Below are positions 2,567 to 22,952 of a stretch of DNA of 38,354 nucleotides, piece by piece. The position numbers and the translations under genes are program-made. Positions within the stretch are counted from its first letter, which is position 1. Each line of letters starts with the position of its first letter. The notes below the pieces were generated by a model, which ran no database searches, was not told where the DNA came from, and worked only from the letters and a program-made list of their open reading frames with translations. This stretch comes from an uncultured Bacteroidales bacterium (GTDB lineage Bacteria > Bacteroidota > Bacteroidia > Bacteroidales > UBA3824), in the NCBI GenBank assembly GCA_946409405.1, contig CAMJWL010000010.1, positions 1 through 38,354 of the forward strand. The letters run 5' to 3'.

Positions 2567-2969
2567 TGCTGATAGTCTTCTTAATGGTTAGAATGTTTTC
2601 CGTGCCGGAGTATTCATAGTTAACGCTGTCCATTTGCTTGATAGTGAGCAGAATACCCAAACCTCCGATGCTCCTTTCTTCGAGAGGCAGGGAGGTGTCA
2701 GGCATTTCACGTTCAAGCGGATTGAATTTTTTTCCTCCGTCTTTGAAACGGATGGTTATCTCGGCAGGCGACTTTTCTATTTCCACATCGAGATAACCGT
2801 CCGCATCTTCATCGTAAGCATAACTTGCAACGTTCACTATCAACTCCTCGCACACAAGGTGTAATGCAAAAAATTCCTTTTTGCACGACGAAACCTCCTC
2901 TGTGGCAATCACCGCATTGACGATTTCATCCGCCTTATCCTTGATGGGTTGAAAATGAAGTTTCCTCAT
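2556..2969 (-). CDS. RsbW/SpoIIAB-like ATP-binding anti-sigma regulatory protein (HATPase)
   Basis: LVCEELIVNVASYAYDEDADGYLDVEIEKSPAEITIRFKDGGKKFNPLERE...GLGILLTIKQMDSVNYEYSGTENILTIKK. Confidence 0.85.
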   Translation of the reverse strand: MRKLHFQPIKDKADEIVNAVIATEEVSSCKKEFFALHLVCEELIVNVASYAYDEDADGYLDVEIEKSPAEITIRFKDGGKKFNPLEREMPDTSLPLEERSIGGLGILLTIKQMDSVNYEYSGTENILTIKKTISNEK

Positions 2970-3280
2970 TATTTCTCGATAAAGTTGATGTACTCCTGAA
3001 TGCCAGTCATCTCAAATACGCTGTAGATTTCCTTGGCACAGTTGATGAACTCGATTTCGGGGTTGCCGCCGAGTTTCTGCTTAGCGAAGATGATGGTACG
3101 GATGCCGCTGCTCGCGATGTACTTGAGTGCGGTGGCGTCAAAGACAACCTTCTCCACGCCTTGGTTCTTGTACTTATTGAGTTCGTCCATCAACGCCGGA
3201 GCATTGGCGGTGGTGAGTTCCTGTCCGAGAACAATCTCAAGAACATTGCCGTCCTTCTTTACTTCAAATGTATTCTCCAT
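2969..3280 (-). CDS. STAS-domain anti-sigma factor antagonist
   Basis: LEIVLGQELTTANAPALMDELNKYKNQGVEKVVFDATALKYIASSGIRTIIFAKQKLGG. Its stop overlaps the next start (TAATG). Confidence 0.88.
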   Translation of the reverse strand: MENTFEVKKDGNVLEIVLGQELTTANAPALMDELNKYKNQGVEKVVFDATALKYIASSGIRTIIFAKQKLGGNPEIEFINCAKEIYSVFEMTGIQEYINFIEK

Positions 3281-3318: not shown

Positions 3319-5433
3319 CTATTTACCTACCAAAATCATTATCGACCTTGCTTCAACGAGAACTTCCCACTGATTGTCAATAAGGATTTCGTAACCCGGC
3401 TCTACAATGTCCTGAGGTGCAGCCATGCCAGTATTTGCAAAAACGTGCCACTTCAATCCGTCGGGCAACTGAGGCAACTCAAATCCGTGCATCTCCCAGT
3501 GCATGTTCATTGCAACGTAGATGAAGTCGTCGGGCTTGCCGTCCGAATCGGCGTAACGTCCGTTGAGCATGAACGCCTGAGTAAGATTGTTGTATGTGTT
3601 CCACGGCTGCCAAGCCTTGACACCGTGCCAAGAGAAATCGGGCATGCCGAGGTTGCGCCAGTCGGAGTGTCCGAGGTGGTACTCGTAACGCAACGCCCTG
3701 TGCTGACGGCGGAACTTGATTATCTTTTGGAAGAAGTTGAACAAGTCAGCATTCTTTTCGAGATTGTTCCAATCGAGCCACGAAATCTCGTTGTCCTGAC
3801 AGTAAGCATTGTTGTTGCCGAATTGAGTATTGCCAATTTCGTCGCCAGAAAGCACCATCGGGATTCCCTGCGAAGTCATCAGGATAGAGATGAAATTCTT
3901 AATCTGCTTGTGGCGCAGAAAGTTGGTGCCAATGTCGGTGGATTCGCCTTCCCAGCCGCAGTTCCAAGAATTGTTGTGGTCGTCGCCGTCGCGGTTGCCC
4001 TCGCCGTTGGCTTCGTTGTGCTTGCCGTCGTATGACACCAAGTCCATCATCGTAAAGCCATCGTGCGCGGTCACGAAATTGACACTCGCCTTGATGCCAC
4101 GGTTTGCGGAGGCGTACAAGTCGGCGGAACCTGTGATACGTTCCTTCACCTCGTCGAGTACATGCTCGTCGCCTTTTACAAAACGACGGATGGCGTCGCG
4201 GTACTTGCCGTTCCATTCAGCCCAGCGTCCCCACGACGGGAACGAGCCTACCTGATACAATCCGCCCGCATCCCACGCCTCGGCGATGAGTTTGGTCTTG
4301 CCAAGTATCGGGTCGTGCGCCAATGATTCCAAAAGCGGCGGATTAGACATCGGATAGCCGTTTTGGTCGCGTCCGAGGATGGCTGCAAGGTCAAACCTGA
4401 ATCCGTCCACGTGATAATCCGTCACCCAATAACGCAACGAATCCACAATCATGTCGCGCACGTTGGGGTTGTTGCAGTTCAAGGTGTTGCCACAGCCGGA
4501 GAAGTTGAAATAATAACCATCCTGCGTGAGCATATAGTACGTCTTGTTGTCGATGCCACGGTACGAAATGTAAGGGCCGTTTTCGTTGCCCTCGGCGGTG
4601 TGGTTGAACACAACGTCAAGTATAACTTCGATGCCCTCGGCGTGGAGACGCTTGATGAGGTTTTTCAACTCATCTACCTGCATGGAATACTTGCCCGTGG
4701 AAGCGTATGCCGCCTTCGGTGCAAAAAATCCCACGTTGGAATATCCCCAGGCGTTGTACAATGTATGACCATCGGGCGCGGGGCGCGAATTTTCAAACTC
4801 GTCAAACTCGTGTATAGGCATGAGTTCCACACAGTTGACACCGAGTTCTTTGAGGTACGGGATTTTTTCCGCAATACCTGCAAAAGTGCCCGGATGCTTC
4901 ACACCCGACTTGGCGCCACAGGTGAAATTGCGCACGTGCATCTCGTATATCACGAGGTCGTTGACGGGAGTTTCGAGCGGGAGGTCGTTTTCCCAGTCAA
5001 AATCGTCAAACACCACACGCGAGCGGTATTGGTAATTGTTGATCCAATCAGGCTCCTTGCCCCACACGTCGCGTCCGGCGATGAGTTTGGCGTAAGGATC
5101 CATGAGGATTTTGGTCTTGTCGAAACGGTGTCCCTGCCTCGGGTCAAACGGGCCGTCCATGCGGTAGCCGTACTCGATGTTTTCGTAGTCGAGGTCAAAA
5201 ACCATCATCGAAAAGACGTTGCCAAGCCTGAACTCCTTGAAAAAAGGAATCTCCAAGAAGGGCGTCTTATCGTGGTTGTGAAACAGCACGAGAGTACAAT
5301 CTGTGGCATAGCGCGAATAAATCGAAAAATTCACCGCATTGCCCACCACGGTCGCACCGAAAGGATACGGACGACCAGCACGGAGTTTATAGCCGCCAAA
5401 CTCGTGTGTCGGGAATAAATCTACTCTTTGCAT
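3319..5433 (-). CDS. glgX: Glycogen debranching enzyme / isoamylase-type GH13
   Basis: 704 aa with an N-terminal CBM48-like region and GH13 motifs VILDVVFNHTAEG, VDGFRFDLAAILGRD, LIAEAWD, VTAHDGFTMMDLVSYDGKHNEANGEGNRDG. Confidence 0.93.
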   Translation of the reverse strand: MQRVDLFPTHEFGGYKLRAGRPYPFGATVVGNAVNFSIYSRYATDCTLVLFHNHDKTPFLEIPFFKEFRLGNVFSMMVFDLDYENIEYGYRMDGPFDPRQGHRFDKTKILMDPYAKLIAGRDVWGKEPDWINNYQYRSRVVFDDFDWENDLPLETPVNDLVIYEMHVRNFTCGAKSGVKHPGTFAGIAEKIPYLKELGVNCVELMPIHEFDEFENSRPAPDGHTLYNAWGYSNVGFFAPKAAYASTGKYSMQVDELKNLIKRLHAEGIEVILDVVFNHTAEGNENGPYISYRGIDNKTYYMLTQDGYYFNFSGCGNTLNCNNPNVRDMIVDSLRYWVTDYHVDGFRFDLAAILGRDQNGYPMSNPPLLESLAHDPILGKTKLIAEAWDAGGLYQVGSFPSWGRWAEWNGKYRDAIRRFVKGDEHVLDEVKERITGSADLYASANRGIKASVNFVTAHDGFTMMDLVSYDGKHNEANGEGNRDGDDHNNSWNCGWEGESTDIGTNFLRHKQIKNFISILMTSQGIPMVLSGDEIGNTQFGNNNAYCQDNEISWLDWNNLEKNADLFNFFQKIIKFRRQHRALRYEYHLGHSDWRNLGMPDFSWHGVKAWQPWNTYNNLTQAFMLNGRYADSDGKPDDFIYVAMNMHWEMHGFELPQLPDGLKWHVFANTGMAAPQDIVEPGYEILIDNQWEVLVEARSIMILVGK

Positions 5434-5803: not shown

Positions 5804-7663
5804 TTAGTTTTTGGGTACAACAACAACTTTTACCTTGGGACGGTACTCTACTGCGGGCAACTGAACCGTGAGAGCGTCAGCGTCAAACTTGGTCCACGGC
5901 TTGCCGTCGATTTCCACGCTTTCGATCTTGATGCTGTTGACGGGCAGGATGTCCGGGCTTACGCGAAGGATGCCGTCCTTGAAACCATTGACAACCGGCT
6001 TGAAATACAGCGGCAACGGCTTCTTGGTGTTGAGGAGGTTGGTGTATGTAGCGGCAAGGTATGCCAACTCTACCGAGTGGTAAGCACTCATCGAGTGAGA
6101 ACCCTTCTTACGCTCCGTGCCAAGCAAGTAAGGCAGACCGTTGGCGAGAACGTTGAAATATACAGCACCGTCGTCGTGGTCGAGGAAGTAGGTGTTGTAG
6201 AATGCGGCGGATTCGCGGGCGTACTTCAAGTACATCGGGTCTTTGAAAATGCCGTAGAGGATTTCGTAAGCCAAGATGCCCTGCTCCTGCTGCCACCATG
6301 CCTTGCGGTCGTGCCATGCAAAACGGTAGAACTCCTCGTCGTTGTGGAGTTTGCGCTCCATCACGTCGTACCAGCCGTAACGCTGTACGTCCATGCCCAC
6401 CTGAGGCATCACCTCGGCGATGTGCTTTGCAAACGCCTTGTACGAATCCTTGGGGCAAACGCTGTCGAAACGCATCAAGTTCCAGGCAATCTTCAAGTTG
6501 TGACCAACAACTGCCCTGTCCTGCTGCCAGCCCCAAGAGAGGTCGTGGCTCCAATCGTCCATGAAACGCTCGTTGACAAACGGAGAGTTCTCATAGTCGG
6601 GGAAGTGTCCCGCGATGGTGTCGAATGTGTATTCGAGGAATTTCTTGTATTTCTCCTCGCCGGTGGCAAGGTAGAGGTTGATGAGGTATGCCGGTGCGTG
6701 GTCGCCCACGGAGTTCCAGTTTTTCTTCATGCGGTTTGCGCCGAGGCTTGCGCTGTTGGGGCTGAGGGTAACGGGGTCGATGTGCGAATAATAGCCCTCG
6801 CCCTTGGTGTCCTTGAAGAAGCGGTCAAACAGGTCGATGGTCAATTCGGCATCCTTCAAAATCTTCGGGTCGCCGTTGGCGCGGAAGGTTTGGATAGGAC
6901 CAGCCAATGCGTAAATCTGCTCGTACATCGGGATAGCGTCGTAGTCGTCGCCAAACTCGGAGGTAAAGATTTTCTTCTCCTGACCGTTGGCGTCAACGTC
7001 GATGCCGTGGTACCAATATACCACATTCTCGTCCACATCGTAGAAACGCATGTGTTTTTTGAGGTACTCGACGCCCTTCTCGGCAACTTCAAGGTAGATG
7101 TCCTCGCCGGTGAGCATGAATGCCGAAGCCATACCGTAAATCATACGGGAAATGGTGTCGGTCTCCTGACGGAACGAATTTTTCTCGCTCTTGCCGCCGA
7201 GAGTTACAGAGGTGCGGTAGTTGTCGTAATTGATGTTGCCGTCGGGGAACTGAGCGCGGATGAAGAAGTTGCAGATGCTCTTCGCCTGATTTGCCCACCA
7301 GTTTTGCTCCTCAAAACGATACTTGCCCTTGCCCTTTTCGGGGAAGTCAATCTGCTTGGCCTCGAAGTCGAAAGTGCCGTCAGTCTTCGGATAGAAAATA
7401 CCGAAAGCAAACACCATCCTGCCGTCCTGAGCAAGGAGGTCGTACATGTTGCCTGTGGCGTCCTGATACGGCTCGTCGAGGTTGCGCATCAGACGTGCGT
7501 AGGTGGTTGCGCCAAGCAATACATTGAATGCCCTGCCATCAGAAGTGGTCAAGGTGAAAGATTTCTTGTCGGCGTTGAAGCCGCTTACGTAGCCGGAAAT
7601 CAAGTCGGTAAACTCGAACTGCATTTTGCCAGCCGGCTTAAATGTCTTGAAATTGTCCTTCAT
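5804..7663 (-). CDS. N-acylglucosamine 2-epimerase (AGE)-like (alpha/alpha)6-barrel protein with extra N-terminal domain
   Basis: WWANQAKSICNFFIRAQFPDGNINYDNY...DWSHDLSWGWQQDRAVVGHNLKIAWNLMR...WHDRKAWWQQEQGILAYEILYGIFKD is AGE-like. The roughly 120-aa N-terminus is separate. Confidence 0.75.
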   Translation of the reverse strand: MKDNFKTFKPAGKMQFEFTDLISGYVSGFNADKKSFTLTTSDGRAFNVLLGATTYARLMRNLDEPYQDATGNMYDLLAQDGRMVFAFGIFYPKTDGTFDFEAKQIDFPEKGKGKYRFEEQNWWANQAKSICNFFIRAQFPDGNINYDNYRTSVTLGGKSEKNSFRQETDTISRMIYGMASAFMLTGEDIYLEVAEKGVEYLKKHMRFYDVDENVVYWYHGIDVDANGQEKKIFTSEFGDDYDAIPMYEQIYALAGPIQTFRANGDPKILKDAELTIDLFDRFFKDTKGEGYYSHIDPVTLSPNSASLGANRMKKNWNSVGDHAPAYLINLYLATGEEKYKKFLEYTFDTIAGHFPDYENSPFVNERFMDDWSHDLSWGWQQDRAVVGHNLKIAWNLMRFDSVCPKDSYKAFAKHIAEVMPQVGMDVQRYGWYDVMERKLHNDEEFYRFAWHDRKAWWQQEQGILAYEILYGIFKDPMYLKYARESAAFYNTYFLDHDDGAVYFNVLANGLPYLLGTERKKGSHSMSAYHSVELAYLAATYTNLLNTKKPLPLYFKPVVNGFKDGILRVSPDILPVNSIKIESVEIDGKPWTKFDADALTVQLPAVEYRPKVKVVVVPKN

Positions 7664-7702: not shown

Positions 7703-8392
7703 TTAATCGTGTACGGGACGTATGCAACGCCCGCTGCAACGTGTAAACAATTTGCCAACCATGTTGAACTTTGCGCTTACGAAAAGTCCCTTGGCGCACT
7801 TGTCGGTCTCGTCGTCGAGAGTGCTGCTCCAATAATAGCCGCGCATCTCGTATTCTGTGTTGCCCTGAAACCTTGTACCCGTCAATGGCATGAAAATGCT
7901 TGTGCCGTTGGGTCCTACGAAAGTGGTTCCCTGCTTGCCGTTGAGGACACCAAATGTAATTTCACAATTTTCGAGCAACTCGTTGATGTCGTCCAACGTA
8001 GGCATACGCCAGCCGTTGCCCCACAACTGTCTTACAACGTCGTCGCAATCTTCCAACTGCGTGAGATTGTCCTTGATGCCAAATTCGCCGGTAGTGCCGT
8101 ATTTGGTGAGCGTCTTTACCGCGCCAATTTCGTCAACCTGCGAGCAAAACTTATAGTCGGTAAAGTCGCACTGCGATTTTGTAGCGAGTTCACCCCACGA
8201 GTAGAAATTGCCCACGTCAATCGGCTTGGTCGCGCCGACATTCATAGTAGCCCATTTGAGACCCGACGGCAGACCCAAATCCACATATTCGTACCCGCCG
8301 TATGGGTATTCTTCGTTCTCGTCCTCGTCGCAAGCCGCCACCAGGAATAGAGCCGAGAGAATCAGTGTGTATAAATAAAATTTTTTTATCAT
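7703..8392 (-). CDS. Lipoprotein with Fibrobacter succinogenes major paralogous (FISUMP)-type domain
   Basis: Lipobox LVAACDEDENEE; YEYVDLGLPSGLKWATMNVGA; LWGNGWRMPTLDDINELLENC; YYWSSTLDDE; CIRPVHD. Confidence 0.8.
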   Translation of the reverse strand: MIKKFYLYTLILSALFLVAACDEDENEEYPYGGYEYVDLGLPSGLKWATMNVGATKPIDVGNFYSWGELATKSQCDFTDYKFCSQVDEIGAVKTLTKYGTTGEFGIKDNLTQLEDCDDVVRQLWGNGWRMPTLDDINELLENCEITFGVLNGKQGTTFVGPNGTSIFMPLTGTRFQGNTEYEMRGYYWSSTLDDETDKCAKGLFVSAKFNMVGKLFTRCSGRCIRPVHD

Positions 8393-8445: not shown

Positions 8446-9669
8446 TTACTTGTTGTCAACAGGAGCCTGCCCTACTTCCTCGTCAGCCTCGGTAAGCGGG
8501 CGCGGAGATATTGTGGAAGCAAACGCCTTAACAGCAAAACCGATGACAACAGTAGTTACCGTGGCAACGATAAAGCGCATCCTCAGCGACTCGCTGTCGG
8601 TTCCGGTGCCAAAAAGGTTGGTGTAGAACGGCGACACAAACTGTCCCAACTGCGCCACCATCGACACAATAGCCACACCGAGAGTGCGCTGCCTTGGAGT
8701 AACAATACGCGGCACAAAGGTAAACAACGGAGGAATAGACACGCCGCCGCCGATACCAATTATCAGGCAACCTGTCATTATCATATTATACGATTGAGCC
8801 TCGGCGATAACAAAATAACCCGCCGCCATAAACAACGTGGCTATCGTTACCGTCCAGTCTTTGAGATTCTTCATAAGCCAGCCAAGCATTATGCCGGCAA
8901 ATATGGCAGGAATCCTCATCACCGACAATGCAAAACCGCAGTCCTGTGCGTCGCCGAGATTCTCGTGAACCATAAAGAGGGCGAGGTCGGTATTCACCAC
9001 GAAGAAACATACAAAAATCATCATGGCAAAAAACGCAAGAGGATAAATCTTCCAGTCGAACGGTTTCTTTTTGCCCGTAGCGGCAGCCTGCTTCTTCATA
9101 GGCGGTATCGACGGCATAAACATCAACGTCATCAATATAGACACCACCACAAAGGCATAGCACAAAAACGAATAACGCCACGAGATATTGGCAAGCACGC
9201 CCGAAAGTGCCATAAAAATAAGGCCTCCGAGTTGGTTGACCGCACCCTGATAGCCCATCATCTTGTTGCGACGGTTGGTGTCGGACACAAAATCGAAGAT
9301 GAGCGACGTGGAAAGCGGTGTCATGATGCCGATGCCAACGCCAAACATCACGCGCATGGCGATAAGCACCTTGAAATCATCTACAAAACCGCCACCTACG
9401 CCAAAGACCAAGAACAAGAACATGCCAACCAGCAAAATCTTCTTCTTGTCGAAACGCTCGGTAAGTTTGGCAGCCACAAGTCCGAGCGGCATCATCAGGG
9501 TAGGCAACGTAAGCACCAACTTGGCCTCCGTCTCGCTGATGCCCTGAAAAGCCTCCTTGATAGCCGCCAACGCAGGTGCTACCGCCGTAGGTGCCATGAT
9601 GGTAAGCAACGACACCGACAATATCGCCGGCATCAGCATCACTGAATATTTTTCTTCTTCCTTCTCCAT
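8446..9669 (-). CDS. MFS transporter
   Basis: About 12 hydrophobic segments; GLVAAKLTERFDKKKILLVGMFLFLVFGVGGGFV is an MFS loop 2-3 motif. Confidence 0.88.
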   Translation of the reverse strand: MEKEEEKYSVMLMPAILSVSLLTIMAPTAVAPALAAIKEAFQGISETEAKLVLTLPTLMMPLGLVAAKLTERFDKKKILLVGMFLFLVFGVGGGFVDDFKVLIAMRVMFGVGIGIMTPLSTSLIFDFVSDTNRRNKMMGYQGAVNQLGGLIFMALSGVLANISWRYSFLCYAFVVVSILMTLMFMPSIPPMKKQAAATGKKKPFDWKIYPLAFFAMMIFVCFFVVNTDLALFMVHENLGDAQDCGFALSVMRIPAIFAGIMLGWLMKNLKDWTVTIATLFMAAGYFVIAEAQSYNMIMTGCLIIGIGGGVSIPPLFTFVPRIVTPRQRTLGVAIVSMVAQLGQFVSPFYTNLFGTGTDSESLRMRFIVATVTTVVIGFAVKAFASTISPRPLTEADEEVGQAPVDNK

Positions 9670-9707: not shown

Positions 9708-10928
9708 TTACATAAACATACGACCCGGCTTGCCCACGGTAACGCTCAGGCGGACAAAATTGACCACTCCCGCCATAAAATGCTGACGTTTTGGGTTGAT
9801 GTCCTGCCATAAGAACTCAGGCGTACAATAGTAGCCCAAGACAATGCGCCTCGTAACAGACATTACGCAGTATGCGCAGGCATTGATACACGTGAACCTG
9901 TCGGAAAGCAATCCCTGACCCTCTACCTCCAAGCCTACTTTGCGCACAAAACATTTTGGGGCAATCTTGGACGGCAAGAAACGGATACCCGCCGAAGCCA
10001 TGAAAGTCTCCTTTGCCGCATCCTTCTTATTTTCGTAATAAACGTATGCACGGCTCTGTTTCATAATGTCGAAAGTGCCGGACGTATGCGGCATCATACC
10101 CACATAGCCTACGTTGCCGCCCGCATTGAGGAACACGGTGGTGCTGCGACCCTTATGGGCTACCTCCGCCTCATACGAGAAATAAGTGTTCTTGCCATGG
10201 TTGTAGGAAGGAAAGAGTTTTTGAAGTTCCTCCTCATGCGACTTGTTGAGCGAAACGATAGTGTGCATCTGCATACCATTTTTGAAAGGCTGATGCATTC
10301 CCGCATAGATGGATTTCAATTTGATAGGCTTGAACATCGGCTTGACACCCACGAAATACACACCATTACCGTTTTTGAAACGTCCGTCCCATTCTACGGC
10401 ATCGTTGATGAAAATCTTGCGACCATGCTGATGCGCCGACGACTCCTCCAACGCTATGCGCCCAAAAAACTGAGATTCCGACACCGTGTTGCACAGACGA
10501 CCAATACGGAACTTCATGTTTTTGTTCTTGAAAAAATGCTCCATCTCCAAGTTGGTGATTACAACCATCGCCTCGGAATTGAGACCTTCCTCAATGTTGA
10601 GGAAAGTAACGGTGGAATACATATTGGTACGTTCAGGCAGCGCGGACGACAAAATCCAGTCGGCTCTCTGACGATAATACGAGGTAAACGGGAAAGCCTC
10701 CTCAATAGCCTTGTCGTTGGCATTGAAGATAGCGACGTCGCTTGCAATCTGCATCGCCATGTTTATCACATTGACCTTGCTCGTATCAACGTCGAAGCCT
10801 TTCATGGTCTTTGCCTCCACATCGGCGGGATTGAATGTAGAATCGCCCTTGATGGACACCTTCATCTCCTGTGCCGTCGCTGCGAGAGCAAAGACCATTA
10901 GTATTACCGCTGATAATATTTTTTTCAT
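9708..10928 (-). CDS. Secreted/envelope hypothetical protein
   Basis: Signal peptide MKKILSAVILMVFALAATAQE; 406 aa; no family recognised. Confidence 0.7.
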   Translation of the reverse strand: MKKILSAVILMVFALAATAQEMKVSIKGDSTFNPADVEAKTMKGFDVDTSKVNVINMAMQIASDVAIFNANDKAIEEAFPFTSYYRQRADWILSSALPERTNMYSTVTFLNIEEGLNSEAMVVITNLEMEHFFKNKNMKFRIGRLCNTVSESQFFGRIALEESSAHQHGRKIFINDAVEWDGRFKNGNGVYFVGVKPMFKPIKLKSIYAGMHQPFKNGMQMHTIVSLNKSHEEELQKLFPSYNHGKNTYFSYEAEVAHKGRSTTVFLNAGGNVGYVGMMPHTSGTFDIMKQSRAYVYYENKKDAAKETFMASAGIRFLPSKIAPKCFVRKVGLEVEGQGLLSDRFTCINACAYCVMSVTRRIVLGYYCTPEFLWQDINPKRQHFMAGVVNFVRLSVTVGKPGRMFM

Positions 10929-10950: not shown

Positions 10951-12606
10951 TTATACCTTGCCAAGATTAAACGGCGGATACTGCTCGTTGTCAACGAGTA
11001 CATCGATGATGCACGGCTTATTGAGAGCAATGGCCTCTTTGAGTGCCGGTACAAACTCCTCGATTTTGTTGACACGGAAGCCCTTTGCACCACAACTTTC
11101 GGCGTATTTGATGAAGTCGGGATTGTCAAACGACATGAACGCCTCATCGTTGTACATATTCAAGAGGAACTTCTTGATGATATTGAACTCGTTGTTGTTG
11201 AAGATAATCCAGATAACAGGGATGTCATACTGAACGGCGGTCATAAGTTCAAAACCCGCCATCTGATAGCAACCGTCGCCCACGCCCGCGATAACCACCT
11301 TGTCGGGGTTGGCGCACTTGACGCCGATTGCGCCGTTGGTGTGGCTTGCCATGGGGCCAAAACTTCCCGGATTCTGATAACGTTGGTTCTTGTTGAGTTG
11401 CAGGTAAGCCGAAAGCCAGAGCATGTGGCTGCCAGCGTCGCCCATCACGATAGCGTTTTCGGGCAGATTGTCGGAGAGAAGCCTTACCATGTCGCCTGCA
11501 AACATCTTTGCCGCGCCGGTGTGGGGTGCATTGTTGTAATATTTTTCTTGCGAGAGCGTGGGTGCGGACACGGAAAAAGTCTCCTTTGCCAATATCGCCA
11601 AAATCTGTTGCAAAGCCGGCTTGATGTCGCTCAATACGGGTGCTTGCGGCTTATAGACTTTGCCGATTTCCACGGGGTCGATGTTGATGTGTATCAGTTC
11701 CTTGCCTTTGTAGAGGTCGGGGCGGAAGGCAAACGTGGCATTCTGCGCGAAAGAGTTGCCCATCGCGATTACCGTCTCTGCCTGTGCGAAATAATCGTTG
11801 GCAGCCTTGTCGCCCGACGAACCGTACATGCCAAGGCAAAGCGGATGGTTTTCAGGCAGATAACCCTTTGCGTCCATAGTCTGAACAAAAGGAATCTGAT
11901 ATTTTTCCACCAATTGGAGGAGTTCGTCCTTTGCGCCGCTGCGGATGCAACCGTAACCGATGAGGGCGAGCATCTTCTTGCCCTTTTTGAGACTGTCGGA
12001 GAGAATGTCGGCTGCATGGCGGATTTCTGAATCCTTGGGCAGGACGGGCTTGATGTCAAGTTTTATCGGGCGGTAATTCTTGACCTCAGCCGTTGTAATG
12101 TCTTTTGGAATGTGAATATGCACGGGACCCGGACGACCTTCAAAAGCAAGGTTCAACGCCTCTTCCAAGATGTCGCAGGTGTCGTCGGCGTTTTCGATGA
12201 TGAAAGATTTTTTGCAGGTGGCAGAAAACATCACCTGCGAATCGGGGGTGCGGCTAAGACCGGTGGATTCGTTGAGCGCACCTTTGCCCCTCTGACTCAT
12301 GGACGTATAACCCGTGATCGCGAGCAACGGCAACGAATCGCTCAGCGCAACCGCCATGCCCGAAAACAGATTGAACGCACCCGGACCGCCCGTCGCAAAA
12401 CAAACGCCGAGATTGCCCGGATTGAACATTGTGTATCCGCAAGCCATGAAGGAAGCCGCCTGCTCGTTGCGAATGATTACTGTCTTGATTTTTTTGGAGT
12501 CCCTGAGCGCGAGAAGCATGGAGGCGTTTACCTGTCCGCTGCCGCCAAAAACGTGCTTTACACCTATATCTTCAAGGACTTTTACGATGGTTTGATTTAC
12601 GTCCAC
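10951..12606 (-). CDS. Thiamine pyrophosphate-dependent enzyme, acetolactate-synthase-like
   Basis: HVFGGSGQVNASMLLALRDSKKIKTVIIRNEQAASFMACGYTMFNPGNLGVCFATGGPGAFNLFSGMAVALSDSLPLLAITG; GDGCYQMAGFELMTAVQYDIPVIWIIFNNNEFN (TPP motif). Start codon is GTG. Confidence 0.88.
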   Translation of the reverse strand: MDVNQTIVKVLEDIGVKHVFGGSGQVNASMLLALRDSKKIKTVIIRNEQAASFMACGYTMFNPGNLGVCFATGGPGAFNLFSGMAVALSDSLPLLAITGYTSMSQRGKGALNESTGLSRTPDSQVMFSATCKKSFIIENADDTCDILEEALNLAFEGRPGPVHIHIPKDITTAEVKNYRPIKLDIKPVLPKDSEIRHAADILSDSLKKGKKMLALIGYGCIRSGAKDELLQLVEKYQIPFVQTMDAKGYLPENHPLCLGMYGSSGDKAANDYFAQAETVIAMGNSFAQNATFAFRPDLYKGKELIHINIDPVEIGKVYKPQAPVLSDIKPALQQILAILAKETFSVSAPTLSQEKYYNNAPHTGAAKMFAGDMVRLLSDNLPENAIVMGDAGSHMLWLSAYLQLNKNQRYQNPGSFGPMASHTNGAIGVKCANPDKVVIAGVGDGCYQMAGFELMTAVQYDIPVIWIIFNNNEFNIIKKFLLNMYNDEAFMSFDNPDFIKYAESCGAKGFRVNKIEEFVPALKEAIALNKPCIIDVLVDNEQYPPFNLGKV

Positions 12607-12711: not shown

Positions 12712-12942
12712 TTACTTCTCCCACTCGTCGGCGTTGAATTTTGCCTTGGCGAATTTGGGCGGGTTTTCGGAGCAAAGTTTGCCGCCGATTACAACGTCGT
12801 TGAGGTCGTAGCCGTTGAAGAACATATAAATCCTGTCCTTCGGCACGCCGGTAACTTCCGACATTGTTGAGATGAACTTTTCGGCCACGATAGCCTTCTG
12901 CTTGTCGGTCATCTCGATGCTGTGTACTACTATTGCAGGCAT
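12712..12942 (-). CDS. 4-oxalocrotonate tautomerase-superfamily protein
   Basis: MPAIVVHSIEMTDKQKAIVAEKFISTMSEVTGVPKDRIYMFFNGYDLNDVVIGGKL. Start moved to the ATG giving the Pro-1 residue; the ORF track extends it by 13 aa. Confidence 0.75.
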   Translation of the reverse strand: MPAIVVHSIEMTDKQKAIVAEKFISTMSEVTGVPKDRIYMFFNGYDLNDVVIGGKLCSENPPKFAKAKFNADEWEK

Positions 12943-12956
12943 GATGATGTTTTTTT

Positions 12957-13043
12957 TAATAATGCATAATTCACAATGCATAATGCATAATTGCCATCCG
13001 GCGGATGCTAATTATGCATTATGAATTATGCATTATGAATTAC
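12957..13043. repeat. Long imperfect palindrome made of ATGCATAATT-type units
   Basis: ATAATGCATAATTCACAATGCATAATGCATAATTGC - CATCCGGCGGATG - CTAATTATGCATTATGAATTATGCATTATGAATT. Confidence 0.85.
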
Positions 13044-13053
13044 CAAAGTTGGA

Positions 13054-13830
13054 TTAGAGTTTGCTCAATACTTCCACAATCTTGTCACCGTAAGCGATAG
13101 AGGACTCTACCGATGTGCCGGTGATGAAGGGGTGGTCGTAGTAAACCTGCGGATTCTCGCGGGTGGTGTTGATGCGGGCGATGCAAGCACCGTTGGGGCC
13201 AACAGCGTCGCGTACCAAGTCTTCGAGCGGCCAGAGGAAGCCCGGAGTAACGAGTTCAGGAACGCCGTGGTTGTCGGGAGTAGCACCGTAAACATCGAAC
13301 GACATTGCCATGCCAGGGCCGTAGAAGTCCCATGCGCGGGGATGAGCACAAATCTTCTTGCCGTAGATGATCGACTTGTAGTCGTTCTCGGGGTCGCGGA
13401 GGAATACGAAAGCAGATACTGCGTAGCAAAGACCTGCTACGATTTTGCCGCCCTTGTAAGCGTCCATGATGAGTTTGTGGAGTTCCCAGCAGTTGCACAT
13501 GTCGATCATTGCGCCAGGACCGCCGGTGAGGGCGATACAGTCGTAGTCCTTCATGTCGCACTCAGCAAACTTCTTGGGATGTGCCCATTCGTCGCCGTCA
13601 ACGAGTTCCTTACTGCGCTTGCAAACCCAGTCGGGGTTGGTCTTCACGTTCTGAACGCCGTCCACAAAGTCGGGATCAACACTGATTTGGAACGGGAGCG
13701 GCTTCTTGCCGTTCTTGGTTGCGAGTGTTACCTCGAATCCTGCCTTCTTGCAAGCATCCCACGGAGCCTGAAGTTCCTCTGCCCACGAGCCGCACTCGGT
13801 GGCGATAATCAATACTCTTTTCTTTGCCAT
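13054..13830 (-). CDS. DJ-1/PfpI family (type 1 glutamine amidotransferase-like) protein
   Basis: KKRVLIIATECGSWAEELQAPWDACKKAGFEVTLATKNGKKPLP...CIALTGGPGAMIDM...GGKIVAGLCYAVSAFV. Confidence 0.82.
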   Translation of the reverse strand: MAKKRVLIIATECGSWAEELQAPWDACKKAGFEVTLATKNGKKPLPFQISVDPDFVDGVQNVKTNPDWVCKRSKELVDGDEWAHPKKFAECDMKDYDCIALTGGPGAMIDMCNCWELHKLIMDAYKGGKIVAGLCYAVSAFVFLRDPENDYKSIIYGKKICAHPRAWDFYGPGMAMSFDVYGATPDNHGVPELVTPGFLWPLEDLVRDAVGPNGACIARINTTRENPQVYYDHPFITGTSVESSIAYGDKIVEVLSKL

Positions 13831-13901: not shown

Positions 13902-15899
13902 TTATTCGGTAACAGGACGGATACACTGACTGCTTGTACGCGGGTGGATGAACCACATCTTCTGACGCGCCATAAATCCGTATCCGTATGCCGTGTGCCA
14001 GATGTCAACTGTCTGACCAGTCTTATCGACAATCTCGCCGCCACCGCCTTCAACAGCCTCATAACCAGGAGTGCCAGTGGGGTCTGCCGAACCGCTCCAG
14101 TACAAACAGAACATAGACGTACCCTGCGCCATTTCGGTAGCGTGGCGGAAACCTGCTGCGGGAAGTTTCAAGGTGTTGGTGGTAACGCCGTCAACGCTGT
14201 AAGCATAAGCCATTCCAAAGTTGACCCTCGGCGTACCGTAAGGCGCGCCATCGGGAGTGATGCCAGCGTATGTAGGTTCGCTGTCCTCAAAAGCCGACAA
14301 CTCGTTGTAACCCGTCTTGTCGCCGGTGGGCAGACGCCAGAGTCCGCCGAGTTGTGCGCGGGCTGCGTCAAAACGCTCGTCGCCACAGATGTTGAATACG
14401 ATGCTCTCCTCGCTCTTGTCCTCTGCCATCTGACCCAACTCTATGCAGTATTGGTCGATTTTGCTCTTTTCGAGGTCTTTTTCGTCATAGTCGTAAAGCC
14501 TCAGACCAGTGGGGTCGCCAAAGGCAAACATGTCCCACTTGGAACCAGCGGGCAACGCTGCATATCCGTCAGGCACATTGGCAACCAACTTGTCGTTCAT
14601 CATGATGAACGAGCCGGACGTAGAGCCTTCCTCCTCGGATTCGTCCGCAGTAGCAATATGGTATGCAACTTCCGACTTGCCACCTGCGCCATTGGTCTTA
14701 ACGGCGATGAGATTGCCGGAAGCCCAGTACAACGGTGCGCCAGCGGCATTGTCGATGCCAATGTAGAGGGCAACAATCCAGTCGTTCTTCAAGCCAGAGG
14801 CATCCACTGTGCTACCATCGTCCTTGTCGGGAAGGATTACAGCACCAGCGGCAGACTCCGCATCGGTAAACTTGTGGAAAAATTTAGCCAACTTGGGAAC
14901 GCAGAACCACACCTCCTTGCCAGCAAACTGACCAAGGTCGGTATTAATCACAGCCTTGCCATTGCCGTCGAATACAGCCTCGGCAACAGCCTCTGTGCTG
15001 CCCGCAAGACCTATCTGAACGGTACGACCGTCATAGTACATTTCGCCTGTCAAAGAAGTAGTTACCACGAAACTGCCAGCATTGACGCTCGCGGTCTTAA
15101 ATTTCACTTGCAACGCATTGGCAATAGCATTGTCTGAAAGGTCGCTAATTGAGTTGCCCTCAATGCGGCATACGTACTCGCGGTCTGCGGCAAGTGCGGT
15201 GTACTCAATTGTAACGATGTTGCCTTTTGCAGATGCGCCAAACGAGAGCGCGTCCTCACCCTCAGTGGTAAAAGTGCATTTGATGTCGTCCTTCGTCATC
15301 TTGACCGCCTCGGAGAATACGAGTTGCAATTTGCCAGTCAAAGGAACGTCGGTAGCCTCGTCCAACGGCGATGTTTTAACGAGTTGCGGTGCGGTTTCGT
15401 CTGCCACAGCCTTTGTGGTAAATGCCACCATGGTCAATTCGCTGATGGCATTGCCAGCGGTGTCGGCTATCACGCCAGCCACAATGCGCAAGTAATAAGC
15501 CGTACCAGACATGAGGTCGCTGTACTCGATGGTAACAGTCTTGCCATCTGCCACCGGCTTAACCTTGGTGGACTGACCCATGCCATAGCCAATGTAACAT
15601 TCGGGGTCGTCGCCGATAATCTTGACATCCTCGTCGAAAACGAGTTCTACCTTGCCCGAAAGTTCAACGTCAACAGCCTCGTTAGCGGGCGTGGAACTTA
15701 CGAGTTTGGGTGCAACAGTGTCCACAACAACGACCTCCGGATCGGGAAGGGGGTCAATCTTGGTGGTGTCCTGATTCTCTTGTTTGGTAGTGTCGGTCTC
15801 AGGTGAAGGAGGATTGACGGGTTCTTTTTCGTCGTCGTCCTTGCACGCATACATCACCAACGTTGCAAGCAAAATTAATAATCCAAAAATTTTTTTCAT
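13902..15899 (-). CDS. Surface lipoprotein with two Big_5/SbsA-type Ig-like domains and a FISUMP-like C-terminus
   Basis: Lipobox VMYACKDDDEKEP; two copies of APKLVSSTPANEAVDVELSGKVELVFDEDV / APQLVKTSPLDEATDVPLTGKLQLVFSEAV; C-terminus LWRLPTGDK...YWSGSAD...QCIRPVTE. Confidence 0.8.
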   Translation of the reverse strand: MKKIFGLLILLATLVMYACKDDDEKEPVNPPSPETDTTKQENQDTTKIDPLPDPEVVVVDTVAPKLVSSTPANEAVDVELSGKVELVFDEDVKIIGDDPECYIGYGMGQSTKVKPVADGKTVTIEYSDLMSGTAYYLRIVAGVIADTAGNAISELTMVAFTTKAVADETAPQLVKTSPLDEATDVPLTGKLQLVFSEAVKMTKDDIKCTFTTEGEDALSFGASAKGNIVTIEYTALAADREYVCRIEGNSISDLSDNAIANALQVKFKTASVNAGSFVVTTSLTGEMYYDGRTVQIGLAGSTEAVAEAVFDGNGKAVINTDLGQFAGKEVWFCVPKLAKFFHKFTDAESAAGAVILPDKDDGSTVDASGLKNDWIVALYIGIDNAAGAPLYWASGNLIAVKTNGAGGKSEVAYHIATADESEEEGSTSGSFIMMNDKLVANVPDGYAALPAGSKWDMFAFGDPTGLRLYDYDEKDLEKSKIDQYCIELGQMAEDKSEESIVFNICGDERFDAARAQLGGLWRLPTGDKTGYNELSAFEDSEPTYAGITPDGAPYGTPRVNFGMAYAYSVDGVTTNTLKLPAAGFRHATEMAQGTSMFCLYWSGSADPTGTPGYEAVEGGGGEIVDKTGQTVDIWHTAYGYGFMARQKMWFIHPRTSSQCIRPVTE

Positions 15900-15916: not shown

Positions 15917-17401
15917 TTAGTTTGTTTTTTTTGTCAATGATATAGTCTTGTCCGCCTTTTTCCAATTCATATTGAAACCATCCAAGGCGGCAGCAAAACC
16001 AATTTTTTCGTATCCTTCAACAGTAGATTTGCCAGAGGGGTTTGTCAACAAAACATCGGGCGATACGCTCCACACTTTGCCGTCCGCACCATCTTTTCCC
16101 TGCAACAAATGCACATTTGCCTTGCTAAAATCCATTTTAACAGCGCAGTTTGAAACAAAGAGATGCTCCTCTTTTTTCTTGAAGTCGCGCAGATGAGTGC
16201 GCCAGTTGCCAATAGTAATGCTTATCGGCGAATCGCCCATTACACGGCTAAAAATTCCCATCTCCGCCATCTGATGTTTTACATTGGAACCGCGTTGTGC
16301 AAGCCCAATAGTGCCGTCGTTGTTGACCGACATATTGGTGCGACATGGCGACACCATTCCAACATACATTCCATAACCTGTCCAATCAGTATCGTCGAGG
16401 CCGTCGAGGGTAATGTTGATAACGCCCTTGTTGCCCATCGGCGGTATGTGGGTGCATTTTGACGACATCAATTCCATCATTCCGCAGACAAATTTTTCCG
16501 AGCCTGCAAGTATGGACTTGTAACCGTCGGGCATTTTTACGACAGAGAGGTCGATAGTGCCGTTGTTTACAATATGACTGTCGCCGTAGCGCGTCATGCC
16601 GAGAAGAGTGCCGCTCGACCTGCCAAGCATAGTGCCGTTGTTAATAATTTCGTTGTATTCGCCGCCCGAAGTTATCATGCGGGCATCCTCCGACATCTGT
16701 ACATCAATGTTGATAGTGCCTTCGTTGATGAAAGACACATTGTCTGCCATGGAGCCCATGCCGCGCATACGGGTAAGGGGCGAACCCATGCCACCAAATT
16801 TTATCAAACCACGGTTGATGAAGGTGCTGTTTGCATTGCCGCAGAGCCCGAAGCCATACACGCGGAAATCAGCCGAAGGGTCGTGGTCGAAGACAATGAT
16901 AATCACGCCCTCGTTGACCAGCATATTGCCCTCGCCCTCGCTCATCATGCCCAAAAAACGCAGATATTGATAAGGGCGGTCGGGATTGGCCTGATTCTTA
17001 ATCTCATGGCGGTACTTCTCCACCATCGCCTTGGTGTGAATCTCTATGGTGTCGCGGTTGATGATGGTAACGTTGTTAACCTTGGAGGAGGTGTCCTGCA
17101 TGTCGCCGTTGAGCCTGATGGCGGCTATCGCGCTGCAATCGCGCACCACTTCGAGTTCGCGTCCCTTGCCCTTGATGATGGTGGTAACGCGGCGATAACT
17201 GAAATCGTCGGCATTCAGCCCCACAACGATCTTGTGTTGGTTGACGTATGTCTGTCCCGACTTGTCGATGACGACACCCCCGCTTGTCTGTTGAGATGAT
17301 TGCACGGCGGCAACTCTTTGGTTTCTTACCGATGAGCAAGAAACCAAAGGGGCAGCCAATACAATCAGCCACAACAACAGATAAGGCATTCTACTTAGCA
17401 T
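15917..17401 (-). CDS. Lipoprotein, tandem paralog A of an N-x-G-x-I repeat family (predicted beta-solenoid), unknown function
   Basis: Lipobox APLVSCSSVRN; repeats NRDTIEIHTK, NEGVIIIVFDHDP, NRGLIKFGGMGS, NEGTINIDVQM, NNGTMLG, NNGTIDLSVV, NKGVINITL, NDGTIGL. Confidence 0.75.
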   Translation of the reverse strand: MLSRMPYLLLWLIVLAAPLVSCSSVRNQRVAAVQSSQQTSGGVVIDKSGQTYVNQHKIVVGLNADDFSYRRVTTIIKGKGRELEVVRDCSAIAAIRLNGDMQDTSSKVNNVTIINRDTIEIHTKAMVEKYRHEIKNQANPDRPYQYLRFLGMMSEGEGNMLVNEGVIIIVFDHDPSADFRVYGFGLCGNANSTFINRGLIKFGGMGSPLTRMRGMGSMADNVSFINEGTINIDVQMSEDARMITSGGEYNEIINNGTMLGRSSGTLLGMTRYGDSHIVNNGTIDLSVVKMPDGYKSILAGSEKFVCGMMELMSSKCTHIPPMGNKGVINITLDGLDDTDWTGYGMYVGMVSPCRTNMSVNNDGTIGLAQRGSNVKHQMAEMGIFSRVMGDSPISITIGNWRTHLRDFKKKEEHLFVSNCAVKMDFSKANVHLLQGKDGADGKVWSVSPDVLLTNPSGKSTVEGYEKIGFAAALDGFNMNWKKADKTISLTKKTN

Positions 17402-18911
17402 TTAACAACGATACTGTTTGTTTGTCCTTGTCCCAATTGAGTTTTACACCTTCGCCTGAGGCTCTGAATACAAGATTGTCAAAACCAATGATTTCGTTGG
17501 TAAACCTCTTGTCTGCATTGTATATCAGCGCGTCCTCAGCAACACTGTATTGAGTACCAATAACGTAACTTTCGGTTTTTACCAAGTCGATGTAAGACTC
17601 AGTAAAATCGAGTCCAACGCCTTTTGCCACAAACAAATCCTTTGTAGCGGCAAAATCGCGGATACGGGTTTTCCAATGTCCCAACTTAACCTTGCACATA
17701 AGCGGCGGTTCTACGCTGAGAACCTTGGGGGTACACTTGAAACCAACTTCGCCCATGTCGAAATGCACAGGGCCAGTCTGCGAAACACTGATGATGCCGT
17801 CGTTGGTCATGCCCGCCGTGATGCGGTTGCCGCCGATAAGGTCATAAAGGAATCCGTAACCCTGAAATGCTGCATCAGAGGTGGCGTTGCCTTCGATTGC
17901 AATGTCGATGACGCCCTCGTTGACCATTGGCGGAATCACCTTGCGGTTTTGGTTATAGACATTGTACAAGCCGCAGACAAATTTCATGTCGTTGGTCAAT
18001 ATCGAGGTCTGACCTTCGGGAACGGGAACAACAGTAAGATTGATGTTGCCACGGTTGAGAACGGTATTGGTGCCGTAGTGAGTCATGCCAAACAGCGTAC
18101 CGGGAACGCGACCCTTCATCATGCCGTCGTTGATGATGGTGCAGCGGTTTTCGCCGCAGGTAATCATACGGCAATCTTCCGCCATGTCAACATTCATAAA
18201 CATATCGCCCTCATTGATGGCAGTTGCGCCCGCGCCTGTAATGGCGATGCAGCGCATACGAGTACGGCGCGAACCGTTGCCACTAAACTTGATAGTGCCC
18301 TTGTTGATAATTTGGCTGCCGGCACCACCCGCCATCGCAAAACAATACACCCAGATTGGAGTGTCGGGGTCGTGGTCGAAGTAAACCTCAATCGTGCCCT
18401 CGTTGATAATGGTGCAATTCTTGCCCGTGGAACACATGCCAAACATACGCACATATTCGATAGGACGGCCGGTCTCGTCTTCAATCTCCGGGTTAACGGT
18501 CTGCGATTCGTAGAGTTCCACAATCCTTTTGGTGTGGATTTCTATGGTGCCCTTGTTGACGAGCGTTACGTTGTCGATGCTCTTGGTGGTGTCCACCTCG
18601 TTTTGTCCGGCAAAATAGGGGATGTCGTTCATAGCGGCGCAGTCGGTAACGCGCTTCGACACCCAGCCCATGGCCTTCAACACGTTGGCATTGCGCTGAT
18701 AGATGAAGTCGCTCTCGTTAAGGCCAATCACAATCTTGCCCGTGTTGGTGATTGTAGAGCCTGAAACCGGACTGTTCATCTGCTCTGCCAGTGGGAGATC
18801 CGACTCGTTGTTTTTCTTGTTGTCGTTTTCGTCATCGTCCTTGCTACAAGAGGCAACGGTAAACAACAATGCAAAAATCAGCACACTATTTTTTAGTATT
18901 CTGAAATTCAT
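17391..18911 (-). CDS. Lipoprotein, tandem paralog B of the N-x-G-x-I repeat family, unknown function
   Basis: MNFRILKNSVLIFALLFTVASCSKDDDENDN; NKGTIEIHTKRIVELYES, NEGTIEVYFDHDPD, NKGTIKFSGNGSRRTRMRC, NEGVIDIAIEG. Start chosen at 18911 instead of 18941 to begin at the signal peptide. Confidence 0.78.
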   Translation of the reverse strand: MNFRILKNSVLIFALLFTVASCSKDDDENDNKKNNESDLPLAEQMNSPVSGSTITNTGKIVIGLNESDFIYQRNANVLKAMGWVSKRVTDCAAMNDIPYFAGQNEVDTTKSIDNVTLVNKGTIEIHTKRIVELYESQTVNPEIEDETGRPIEYVRMFGMCSTGKNCTIINEGTIEVYFDHDPDTPIWVYCFAMAGGAGSQIINKGTIKFSGNGSRRTRMRCIAITGAGATAINEGDMFMNVDMAEDCRMITCGENRCTIINDGMMKGRVPGTLFGMTHYGTNTVLNRGNINLTVVPVPEGQTSILTNDMKFVCGLYNVYNQNRKVIPPMVNEGVIDIAIEGNATSDAAFQGYGFLYDLIGGNRITAGMTNDGIISVSQTGPVHFDMGEVGFKCTPKVLSVEPPLMCKVKLGHWKTRIRDFAATKDLFVAKGVGLDFTESYIDLVKTESYVIGTQYSVAEDALIYNADKRFTNEIIGFDNLVFRASGEGVKLNWDKDKQTVSLLNAK

Positions 18912-18933
18912 TTTTTTTCTAATTAGTATTTGA

Positions 18934-20223
18934 TTATACAATCGTCAATGTATCGCCGCGCTGCTTGGCGTCTTCGGTCTGATAGACCAAAGTCTTCGGG
19001 TCTGCCTTGGCGGGCTTGCCGTCGAAGGTAAGGCGCATATCGCTGAGGTCGAGGTTTGCGCTGTGGCAAGCAAACAAGTCCTTGGTGTTGGCAAAATCGC
19101 GCTCGCGAGTGTTCCAGGCAACCACCTTCATCTTGACGGGGTTGTCGGTCTTGAGTTGCATATTGATGCCCAGTTCGGCGGTGATGTACTTCTGCGGGCC
19201 TTCTTGCGTAACCTCCACAGTGCCTTCGTTGGATACGTAGCGCGTGGGGGTCTGCCCATCGTCCTTGTTCTCCATCTGATAGTAGAAACCAAAGGCAATT
19301 GCCTCGGGACCGCTCTCCTGAGAACCAACAAGGTGAACTTTGATTTTGCCACGGTTTACTATGGGCGCAGGGAGCATCGTGCCGGGACGGAAATGCTCGT
19401 ACATGCCAGTAGCCATAGGCGGGAAGTTGAAGAGGTACGGAATCTTGCCCTCGATGAGTGTTGCGATGGAAGTAACGTCTATCTCGCCATCGTTCATCAT
19501 GTGGGTGCCGGTAACGCTGCCCATGGTCATCACACGACCACGGACACGTATCTTTATCTTGCCCTCCTTCTTGTTCCACAGCGAGCCGTTCATGCCGGCG
19601 GTGTGGAGGATGCGGGTTTGGAACGCGCGATCCACATCTACGGTGATAAGTCCCTCGTTGATTACTTGAAGATTGTTTGCCACGCCGCCAACGCCGCGCA
19701 CAAGCGACTGCCACGAACCATTGCCATAGAAGTGGATTTCGCCCCTGTTGATGAGTTGCGAATTGGCCTCCGCCCACATTGCACAGCAATACATAGTGGT
19801 CTCGGCATCGGCATCGTGATCCATATAGATGTTGATGACGCCATCGTTGACAAGCACCGAATTTTCGCCCGCCGCCATTGCATAGCCACGAAGCGCGTCC
19901 ACATGGTAATCGGGGTCGCCCTTTGCCATGTTGCGAATATGCTCGGCGTAGAGATCCTTGAAGTGCAGGTCGATGACACCCTTGTTGACCAAGGTGGCAT
20001 TAGGAGCCAGCATCATGTCGCCCGGCGAATTTGGGTCTTCCGTAAGCGCCACAAATCCGCAAATCACGTTGTTCTGCAACTTACGACTGATATTAAACTG
20101 CGCTCCGGCAGCATAACGATATATAAACAAGTTGCGCTCCGATGGGTCGGTAATGTCGAGGTGTTGCTCGTTGACAGCATACACACCCTTGCCCACAAAT
20201 ATAGCCTGATTCGTAGTATTCAT
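18934..20223 (-). CDS. Paralog C of the N-x-G-x-I repeat family, no signal peptide
   Basis: NKGVIDLHFKDLYAEHIRN, NDGVINIYMDHDADAE, NRGEIHFYGNGSWQSLVRG, NEGLITVDVD, NEGTVEVTQEGP, WNTRERDFANTKDLF. An in-frame stop lies upstream of the ATG. Confidence 0.75.
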   Translation of the reverse strand: MNTTNQAIFVGKGVYAVNEQHLDITDPSERNLFIYRYAAGAQFNISRKLQNNVICGFVALTEDPNSPGDMMLAPNATLVNKGVIDLHFKDLYAEHIRNMAKGDPDYHVDALRGYAMAAGENSVLVNDGVINIYMDHDADAETTMYCCAMWAEANSQLINRGEIHFYGNGSWQSLVRGVGGVANNLQVINEGLITVDVDRAFQTRILHTAGMNGSLWNKKEGKIKIRVRGRVMTMGSVTGTHMMNDGEIDVTSIATLIEGKIPYLFNFPPMATGMYEHFRPGTMLPAPIVNRGKIKVHLVGSQESGPEAIAFGFYYQMENKDDGQTPTRYVSNEGTVEVTQEGPQKYITAELGINMQLKTDNPVKMKVVAWNTRERDFANTKDLFACHSANLDLSDMRLTFDGKPAKADPKTLVYQTEDAKQRGDTLTIV

Positions 20224-21176: not shown

Positions 21177-21518
21177 TTATTTCTTATCCCACGGAAATTC
21201 AGTTTTGATTGGAGAGAAAACGTCGATTGCTTCGGTTTCGCCTACTGCCACGAAAGCGTGCGGCACGTTGGCGGGAACAAGATAGGCGTCGCCAGCCTTG
21301 AGATGGAATACTTCTTCGCCAATTGTGAGTTCGAAGCCGCCCTTGATGCAATAGCCAAACTGCTCCTGAGGATGGGTGTGCATGCCTACAACAGACTTGT
21401 CAGACATATTCCAATGAAGTACGTTCATATTTTTGCCGCTTGCAAAATCCTGACGTACAACGCCTTTGCCCATATCGACCTTTGCAATTTGGTCGTGGAA
21501 GAATACAGATTTGTTCAT
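21177..21518 (-). CDS. Cupin-domain protein
   Basis: VVGMHTHPQEQFGYCIKGGFELTIGEEVFHLKAGDAYLVPANVPHAFVAVGETEAIDVFSP. Confidence 0.88.
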   Translation of the reverse strand: MNKSVFFHDQIAKVDMGKGVVRQDFASGKNMNVLHWNMSDKSVVGMHTHPQEQFGYCIKGGFELTIGEEVFHLKAGDAYLVPANVPHAFVAVGETEAIDVFSPIKTEFPWDKK

Positions 21519-22936: not shown

Positions 22937-22952
22937 CCGGGAAGGGGGTAGG

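What the first reader, a model, noticed from the sequence alone, without database searches (positions are those of the whole stretch)
15917..20223. Three tandem paralogs of an undescribed N-x-G-x-I repeat (beta-solenoid-like) family
A, B and C share repeated strand-turn units (NEGTI/NKGVI/NRGLI), a conserved DHD motif after the second strand (VFDHDP, YFDHDP, YMDHDA), a G-x-G-S-xxxx-R-R segment and a W(R/K/N)TxxRDF block. This is a tandem gene-family expansion of apparently structural proteins. I cannot match it to a named family.
Basis: seen in the sequence. Interest (0 to 1): 0.6.

Follow-up and report, generated by a model that had tools for sequence, protein, structure and literature searches.

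The report
Undescribed three-class bacterial beta-solenoid protein family
Three neighbouring genes in a gut-type Bacteroidales genome encode an unnamed family of rod-like repeat proteins, some made for the cell surface and some apparently kept inside, which travel together with one particular set of metabolic and regulatory genes in a few scattered gut bacteria of two phyla.

Summary
Genes C, B and A (20223 to 15917, minus strand) are homologous (B-A 40%, B-C 34%), carry 7-9 N-x-G-x-[IVLM] units each (about 1 expected) and match no Pfam, NCBIfam or PDB family above cut-off. AlphaFold2 predicts a confident beta-solenoid (pLDDT 89 and 92). Corrections: only the first D of "DHD" is invariant (H in 21 of 37). 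It is not a local tandem expansion: a tree shows three old classes, each found in Bacteroidales and Lachnospiraceae. Class II (A, B) are lipoproteins, usually with a surface-export motif; classes I (C) and III never have a signal peptide. One genome lacking the class II lipoprotein carries a class II-like solenoid as passenger of a true autotransporter. The family sits in a conserved island (cupin, lectin-fold lipoproteins, DJ-1, tautomerase, TPP enzyme, MFS, GlgX, STAS and anti-sigma-like proteins); solenoids and TPP enzyme occur in the same 6 of 18 genus genomes. Two genomes have the core without solenoids. Most likely class II is a surface recognition or adhesion rod and classes I and III are intracellular partners or scaffolds; function is inferred. 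New variant of a known kind.

The parts
18934..20223 (-). gene C, class I beta-solenoid, 429 aa, no signal peptide
17391..18911 (-). gene B, class II beta-solenoid lipoprotein, 506 aa, lipobox VASC followed by SKDDDE (lipoprotein export signal-like)
15917..17401 (-). gene A, class II beta-solenoid lipoprotein, 494 aa, lipobox LVSC followed by SSVRNQ (no acidic export signal); start overlaps the end of B by 11 bases
21177..21518 (-). cupin, first gene of the run; found next to the solenoids in L024, L026, L029, L033, L054
20254..21144 (-). lipoprotein with C-terminal Lcl_C / Fib_succ_major-like (lectin-like fold) domain, sub-threshold match
13902..15899 (-). lipoprotein: two Big_5 domains plus a 390-aa C-terminal part conserved (39-52%) beside the solenoids in five other loci
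13054..13830 (-). large DJ-1/PfpI-family protein, core of the island
12712..12981 (-). DmpI-like tautomerase, core of the island
10951..12606 (-). acetolactate-synthase-like TPP enzyme, core of the island
9708..10928 (-). secreted 406-aa protein, probably an outer-membrane barrel (by eye; no Pfam match)
8446..9669 (-). MFS transporter
7703..8392 (-). Lcl_C-like lipoprotein, 33% identical to 20254-21144
5804..7663 (-). probably cytoplasmic sugar-active enzyme; relative in L063 matches GlcNAc 2-epimerase PF07221
5498..5797 (-). STAS-domain anti-sigma-antagonist-like protein
3319..5433 (-). glycogen debranching enzyme GlgX (above NCBIfam cut-off)
2969..3280 (-). second STAS-domain protein
2556..2969 (-). 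HATPase_c_2, RsbW-like anti-sigma-type kinase
2009..2566 (-). small DJ-1/PfpI-family protein

Best explanation
A, B and C belong to an undescribed beta-solenoid family related to autotransporter passengers but, in this island, lacking the barrel. The family has three old classes. Class II (A, B) is carried through the inner membrane and anchored as a lipoprotein, B most likely on the outside of the outer membrane. Class I (C) and class III (not found in this genome) have no export signal and most likely stay in the cytoplasm. All are accessory proteins of a horizontally spread island that pairs an intracellular metabolic core (two DJ-1 proteins, tautomerase, TPP enzyme, GlgX, sugar-active enzyme) with a partner-switching regulator (STAS, RsbW-like kinase, SpoIIE phosphatase in relatives) and with lectin-fold surface lipoproteins. 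Most likely working: class II rods, with the lectin-fold lipoproteins, bind a ligand or neighbouring cell at the surface, while class I and III rods act inside as a scaffold or binding partner of the island's enzymes or substrate. Shown: homology, classes, signal pattern, linkage. Predicted: fold. Inferred: binding, scaffold role, location and horizontal spread.
For: Homology and repeats. AlphaFold2 pLDDT 89.4/pTM 0.88 (B) and 91.7/0.92 (C), nearly all beta. Class tree with each class in both phyla. Signal peptides: lipobox or clear hydrophobic N-terminus in all 14 Bacteroidota class II, none in any of the 22 class I/III; open frames leave hardly any upstream room. B's C-S-K-D-D-D-E fits C-x-K-(D/E)2-x (PMC5080379). 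Class II-like passenger with PF03797 barrel in G414, a genome where otherwise only class I and III are found. A 951-aa protein in L020 with a signal peptide and two class II domains. Island and co-occurrence: solenoids and TPP enzyme in the same 6 of 18 genus genomes, the same 1 of 251 and the same 1 of 200. Purifying selection on all, class II loosest (dN/dS 0.146 against about 0.06 for I/III and 0.05 for TPP).
Against: No experiment. Co-occurrence follows partly from physical linkage. Two genomes have the core without solenoids, so the solenoids are not essential to the core reaction; at L023 the solenoids (class III truncated) have no DJ-1 or TPP gene beside them. Class II of Lachnospiraceae L027 has no signal peptide, so 'class II = surface' is not universal. 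A lacks the acidic export motif. Foldseek gives no match with E <= 0.001 and TM below 0.4, so handedness and closest fold are open. The TPP enzyme's substrate is unknown.
Confidence: 0.5

Rival explanations
1. All classes act outside: class I and III are exported by a signal-peptide-independent route and assemble with class II at the surface.
For: Same fold and homologous ends in all classes. In Lachnospiraceae two ABC exporter half-genes follow class III. Related environmental cluster G106 also has signal-less FGE and Lcl_C proteins, domains usually found outside.
Against: No dedicated secretion gene seen in the Bacteroidales islands; the Lachnospiraceae ABC genes have no peptidase domain in Pfam and are not conserved in Bacteroidales; 3-9 cysteines per class I/III protein and slow, enzyme-like evolution fit the cytoplasm.
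Confidence: 0.2
2. The family is enzymatic: a beta-helix polysaccharide- or sugar-active enzyme with an active site formed by the invariant Y189, R220, R248, E388, D179.
For: These residues are invariant in all 37 relatives; Y189, R220 and R248 fall in register on the third strand of neighbouring coils (by eye); GlgX and sugar enzymes nearby; Foldseek's weak list includes GH28, GH110 and lyases.
Against: No sequence match to any carbohydrate-active Pfam model; no catalytic signature of GH28 or pectate lyase was identified; invariant Arg and Tyr may be structural; Foldseek matches not significant.
Confidence: 0.2
3. Ordinary surface adhesins whose signal-less copies are simply decaying or mis-started.
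For: Patchy distribution; beta-solenoids are common adhesins; one class III copy is truncated (L023).
Against: All 22 full-length class I/III genes compared are signal-less across two phyla, and the pair tested is under purifying selection about as strong as the TPP enzyme's.
Confidence: 0.05

Closest known systems
Type Va autotransporter passenger (Ag43-like beta-helix; PF03797 barrel partner)
   Same: Predicted beta-solenoid; a Parabacteroides MAG (G414) has a protein with class II-like passenger (57.8 bits, best of 500 shuffles 8.2) and a PF03797 barrel. Ag43 heads the (non-significant) Foldseek list for B.
   Different: A, B and C have no barrel; A and B are lipoproteins; C has no signal peptide; three-class operon linked to metabolic genes.
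Hyphal_reg_CWP (PF11765, fungal adhesin beta-helix) and floc_PepA (NF033554)
   Same: Weak repeat-type similarity: 5 of 37 members reach E <= 0.01 with PF11765 (best 9e-4); B reaches 4e-4 with NF033554.
   Different: Weak and partial (20 of 80 bits needed for NF033554); probably shared N-x-G repeat composition.
Surface-exposed Bacteroidota lipoproteins with lipoprotein export signal (PMC5080379)
   Same: B: C-S-K-D-D-D-E; most class II relatives acidic after the cysteine.
   Different: A lacks it; class I and III are not lipoproteins.
FISUMP / Lcl_C / FGE-sulfatase lectin-fold proteins
   Same: Frequent neighbours; in G106, signal-less Lcl_C and FGE proteins stand beside the TPP enzyme where gut loci have solenoids.
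   Different: Different fold; no sequence relation to A, B, C.

Membership tests
beta-solenoid proteins | repeated strand-turn coils stacked in one solenoid | tested here: met
   7-9 N-x-G-x-[IVLM] units and confident AlphaFold2 models of B and C with strands at each unit; prediction only, handedness not seen
beta-solenoid proteins | superposition on a solved solenoid | tested here: inconclusive
   Foldseek matches are mostly beta-helices but none has E <= 0.001 and TM scores are below 0.4
Type Va autotransporter | Sec signal peptide | tested here: not met
   C and all class I/III have none; A and B have lipoprotein signals
Type Va autotransporter | C-terminal 12-strand barrel (PF03797) | tested here: not met
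   no Pfam match in A, B, C nor in the family alignment; met only in the distant relative L051
Type Va autotransporter | passenger homology | tested here: met
   class II profile against L051 protein 57.8 bits, aligned over model 155-486; reciprocal tblastn finds B first in the window's genome, E 4e-13
surface lipoprotein (LES type) | lipobox cysteine followed by acidic export motif | tested here: met
   B CSKDDDE meets it; A does not (CSSVRNQ); not applicable to C (motif from PMC5080379)
metalloprotein with DHD site | conserved D-H-D triad | tested here: not met
   H in 21 of 37, third D in 32 of 37
recent tandem gene expansion | window paralogs closer to each other than to copies elsewhere | tested here: not met
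   C is up to 75% identical to class I copies elsewhere but only 34% to B; A and B lie in separate supported subclades with L020 and G003/G014 copies
polysaccharide-active beta-helix enzyme | match to a carbohydrate-active domain or its catalytic residues | tested here: not met
   no Pfam/NCBIfam match; activity itself not testable here

The most novel reading that the evidence does not exclude
A passenger-type beta-solenoid has been split off from secretion and taken into the cytoplasm as two conserved classes, working there as a scaffold or filament for a mobile metabolic island whose third, surface-displayed class senses or binds the same ligand outside: a matched inside/outside solenoid set shared by diderm and monoderm gut bacteria.
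Probability: 0.15. Interest if true: 0.75.

Novelty: new variant of a known kind. Interest (0 to 1): 0.45.

Why it matters
It is an unnamed protein family with three conserved classes that makes one question testable: why homologous solenoids of one operon are kept partly at the surface and partly without any export signal. It also marks an undescribed, partner-switch-linked metabolic island shared by Bacteroidales families and Lachnospiraceae of gut and rumen communities.

Tried and rejected
Family scans: Pfam, NCBIfam, PADLOC, PHROGs and PDB sequences gave no full-length family. Phage or plasmid origin: no relatives in 50,697 phage and 72,556 plasmid records (C as query) nor in viral contigs, although a Mu-like prophage stands next door. 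Diversifying selection: dN/dS well below 1 for all classes. Metal site at DHD: His not conserved. Empty-site comparison through the neighbouring ArgR gene: the genus copies are too diverged (55-60%) to say whether they are the same site, so no island boundary was shown. Foldseek: no significant match. Literature: no paper on the gene set found with the terms tried; an incomplete library, so absence is weak. Promoter scan: only slightly above shuffles and not suited to Bacteroidota promoters.
Full report
What is there. Three minus-strand genes, C (20223-18934), B (18911-17391) and A (17401-15917), lie head to tail with a gap of 22 bases (C-B) and an 11-base overlap (B-A). They are homologous over most of their length: B-A 40% identity, B-C 34%. 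Each has 7 to 9 N-x-G-x-[IVLM] units where shuffled sequence gives about one. Two details do not survive. Over 37 relatives the 'DHD' motif is only D-x-[DE] (D179 37/37, H180 21/37, D181 32/37), and the 'R-R' of the G-x-G-S segment is one invariant Arg (R220).

Fold. AlphaFold2 with an alignment of 32 relatives gives mean pLDDT 89.4, pTM 0.88 for B and 91.7, 0.92 for C; both are almost wholly beta, with short strands at each N-x-G unit. This supports a beta-solenoid. Foldseek lists mostly beta-helices (antigen 43, tailspikes, GH28, GH110, SufB/D) but no match reaches E 0.001 and TM scores stay below 0.4, so the handedness and nearest solved fold remain open. By sequence there is no Pfam, NCBIfam, PADLOC, PHROG or PDB family; the weak hits to PF11765 and NF033554 look like shared repeat composition.

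Relatives. One scan of about 85,000 species genomes found 14 loci, in Bacteroides, Phocaeicola, Parabacteroides, Prevotella and other Bacteroidales, and in Lachnospiraceae (AC3007, sequenced under a strain name rather than as a MAG; RUI240, a MAG). In the window's genus 6 of 18 genomes have the family; in samples of 393 genomes of the order, 251 of the Phocaeicola family and 200 Lachnospiraceae it was found only in the seed genus or seed genome. The distribution is therefore sparse and patchy. The Lachnospiraceae copies are not contamination by a near Bacteroidales genome: their TPP enzyme is 88% identical between the two and 63-66% to all Bacteroidales ones.

Three classes. A maximum-likelihood tree separates class I (C), class II (A, B) and class III (absent from this genome as assembled, 88% complete), each with Bacteroidales and Lachnospiraceae members (support 100/100 for class I, 90/96 for class III, 99/98 for class II; the root is arbitrary and the autotransporter branch very long). 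Most genomes hold three copies. So the three genes are not a local expansion; A and B alone share a class, in separate subclades.

Signals. In Bacteroidota all class II proteins have a lipoprotein or hydrophobic N-terminus, most with acidic residues after the cysteine; B's C-S-K-D-D-D-E fits the published export motif C-x-K-(D/E)2-x (PMC5080379), A's C-S-S-V-R-N-Q does not. None of the 22 class I and III proteins has a signal peptide, and their open frames leave little or no room for one. An exception on the other side is the class II protein of L027, which has no signal.

Autotransporter link. G414 has class I and III genes but no class II lipoprotein. It carries elsewhere a 733-aa protein with a signal peptide, N-x-G-x-I passenger and a PF03797 barrel. 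The class II profile scores its passenger 57.8 bits (class I 24, class III 30; best of 500 shuffles 8.2) in one alignment that includes the W-x-T-x-x-R-x-F block and the C-terminal part special to class II. The reverse search finds B first in the window's genome (E 4e-13). A Prevotella MAG has a 951-aa protein with a signal peptide and two class II domains. Thus class II solenoids are exported in at least two independent designs, which supports an extracellular role for class II; that the autotransporter replaces the lipoprotein in G414 is one case only.

Neighbourhood. The genes are part of a long minus-strand run: cupin, Lcl_C-like lipoprotein, C, B, A, a lipoprotein whose C-terminal 390 aa is conserved beside the solenoids in five other loci, large DJ-1, tautomerase, TPP enzyme, a barrel-like secreted protein, MFS, Lcl_C lipoprotein, sugar-active enzyme, STAS, GlgX, STAS, RsbW-like kinase, small DJ-1. 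A response regulator with SpoIIE phosphatase follows in relatives. In Lachnospiraceae GlgX, STAS, both DJ-1 proteins, TPP enzyme, solenoids and a SpoIIE protein are together. The TPP enzyme occurs in exactly the six genus genomes with solenoids and in the same single genomes of two family samples; linkage explains part of this. In the order sample two further genomes have the TPP enzyme without solenoids; one of them has signal-less FGE and Lcl_C proteins beside the TPP gene. So the core can do without the solenoids. The reverse was seen locally once: at L023 class II and I and a truncated class III have no DJ-1 or TPP gene beside them; the rest of that genome was not checked for the core.

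Selection. For the pair L021/L025 dN/dS is 0.06 (I), 0.15 (II), 0.06 (III), 0.05 (TPP) and 0.01 (large DJ-1); synonymous divergence is near or above 1, so the ratios are rough. All classes are under purifying selection and class II is the loosest, as expected for a surface protein.

Interpretation. Shown: homology, repeats, classes, signal pattern, linkage. Predicted: solenoid fold. Inferred: class II as surface binding or adhesion rod; class I and III as intracellular partners or scaffold of the island; horizontal spread of the island. Rivals are export of I/III by an unknown route, or an enzymatic role around the invariant Y189/R220/R248/E388 set, which I could not map on coordinates. The finding is a real, undescribed family with an unusual inside/outside split; the function is not established.

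Noticed in passing
window about 22700-38354: Mu-like (transposable) prophage: Mu F-like protein (33185-34687), AAA ATPase of MuB type (25737-26654), a probable transposase (23716-25740) and further phage-like genes fill the right part of the contig, starting just upstream of the island's first gene.
   Followed up: partly
L051 (G414) 3-1397 and L063 (G106) 5818-7824: Signal-less Lcl_C-repeat proteins, 50% identical, one near the autotransporter and one beside the TPP enzyme: lectin-fold proteins also occur here without export signals.
   Followed up: partly
L064 (G192) 11257-14593: Two tandem TPP enzymes (69% and 55% identical to the window's) with cupin, DJ-1, SDR-like and VOC-like genes, no solenoids: a variant of the island core.
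   Followed up: no
L031 9152-13005 and L052 3292-7097: In Lachnospiraceae two ABC exporter half-genes follow the class III solenoid; possible export route or unrelated.
   Followed up: partly
L023 1322-4947: Solenoid cassette with class III cut short (128 aa) and followed by unrelated 2-oxoacid oxidoreductase-like genes instead of the island core: possibly a decaying copy.
   Followed up: no
window 22643-22688: Hairpin of 20 pairs (G-T allowed) followed by a T-run on the plus strand, near the probable prophage end.
   Followed up: no
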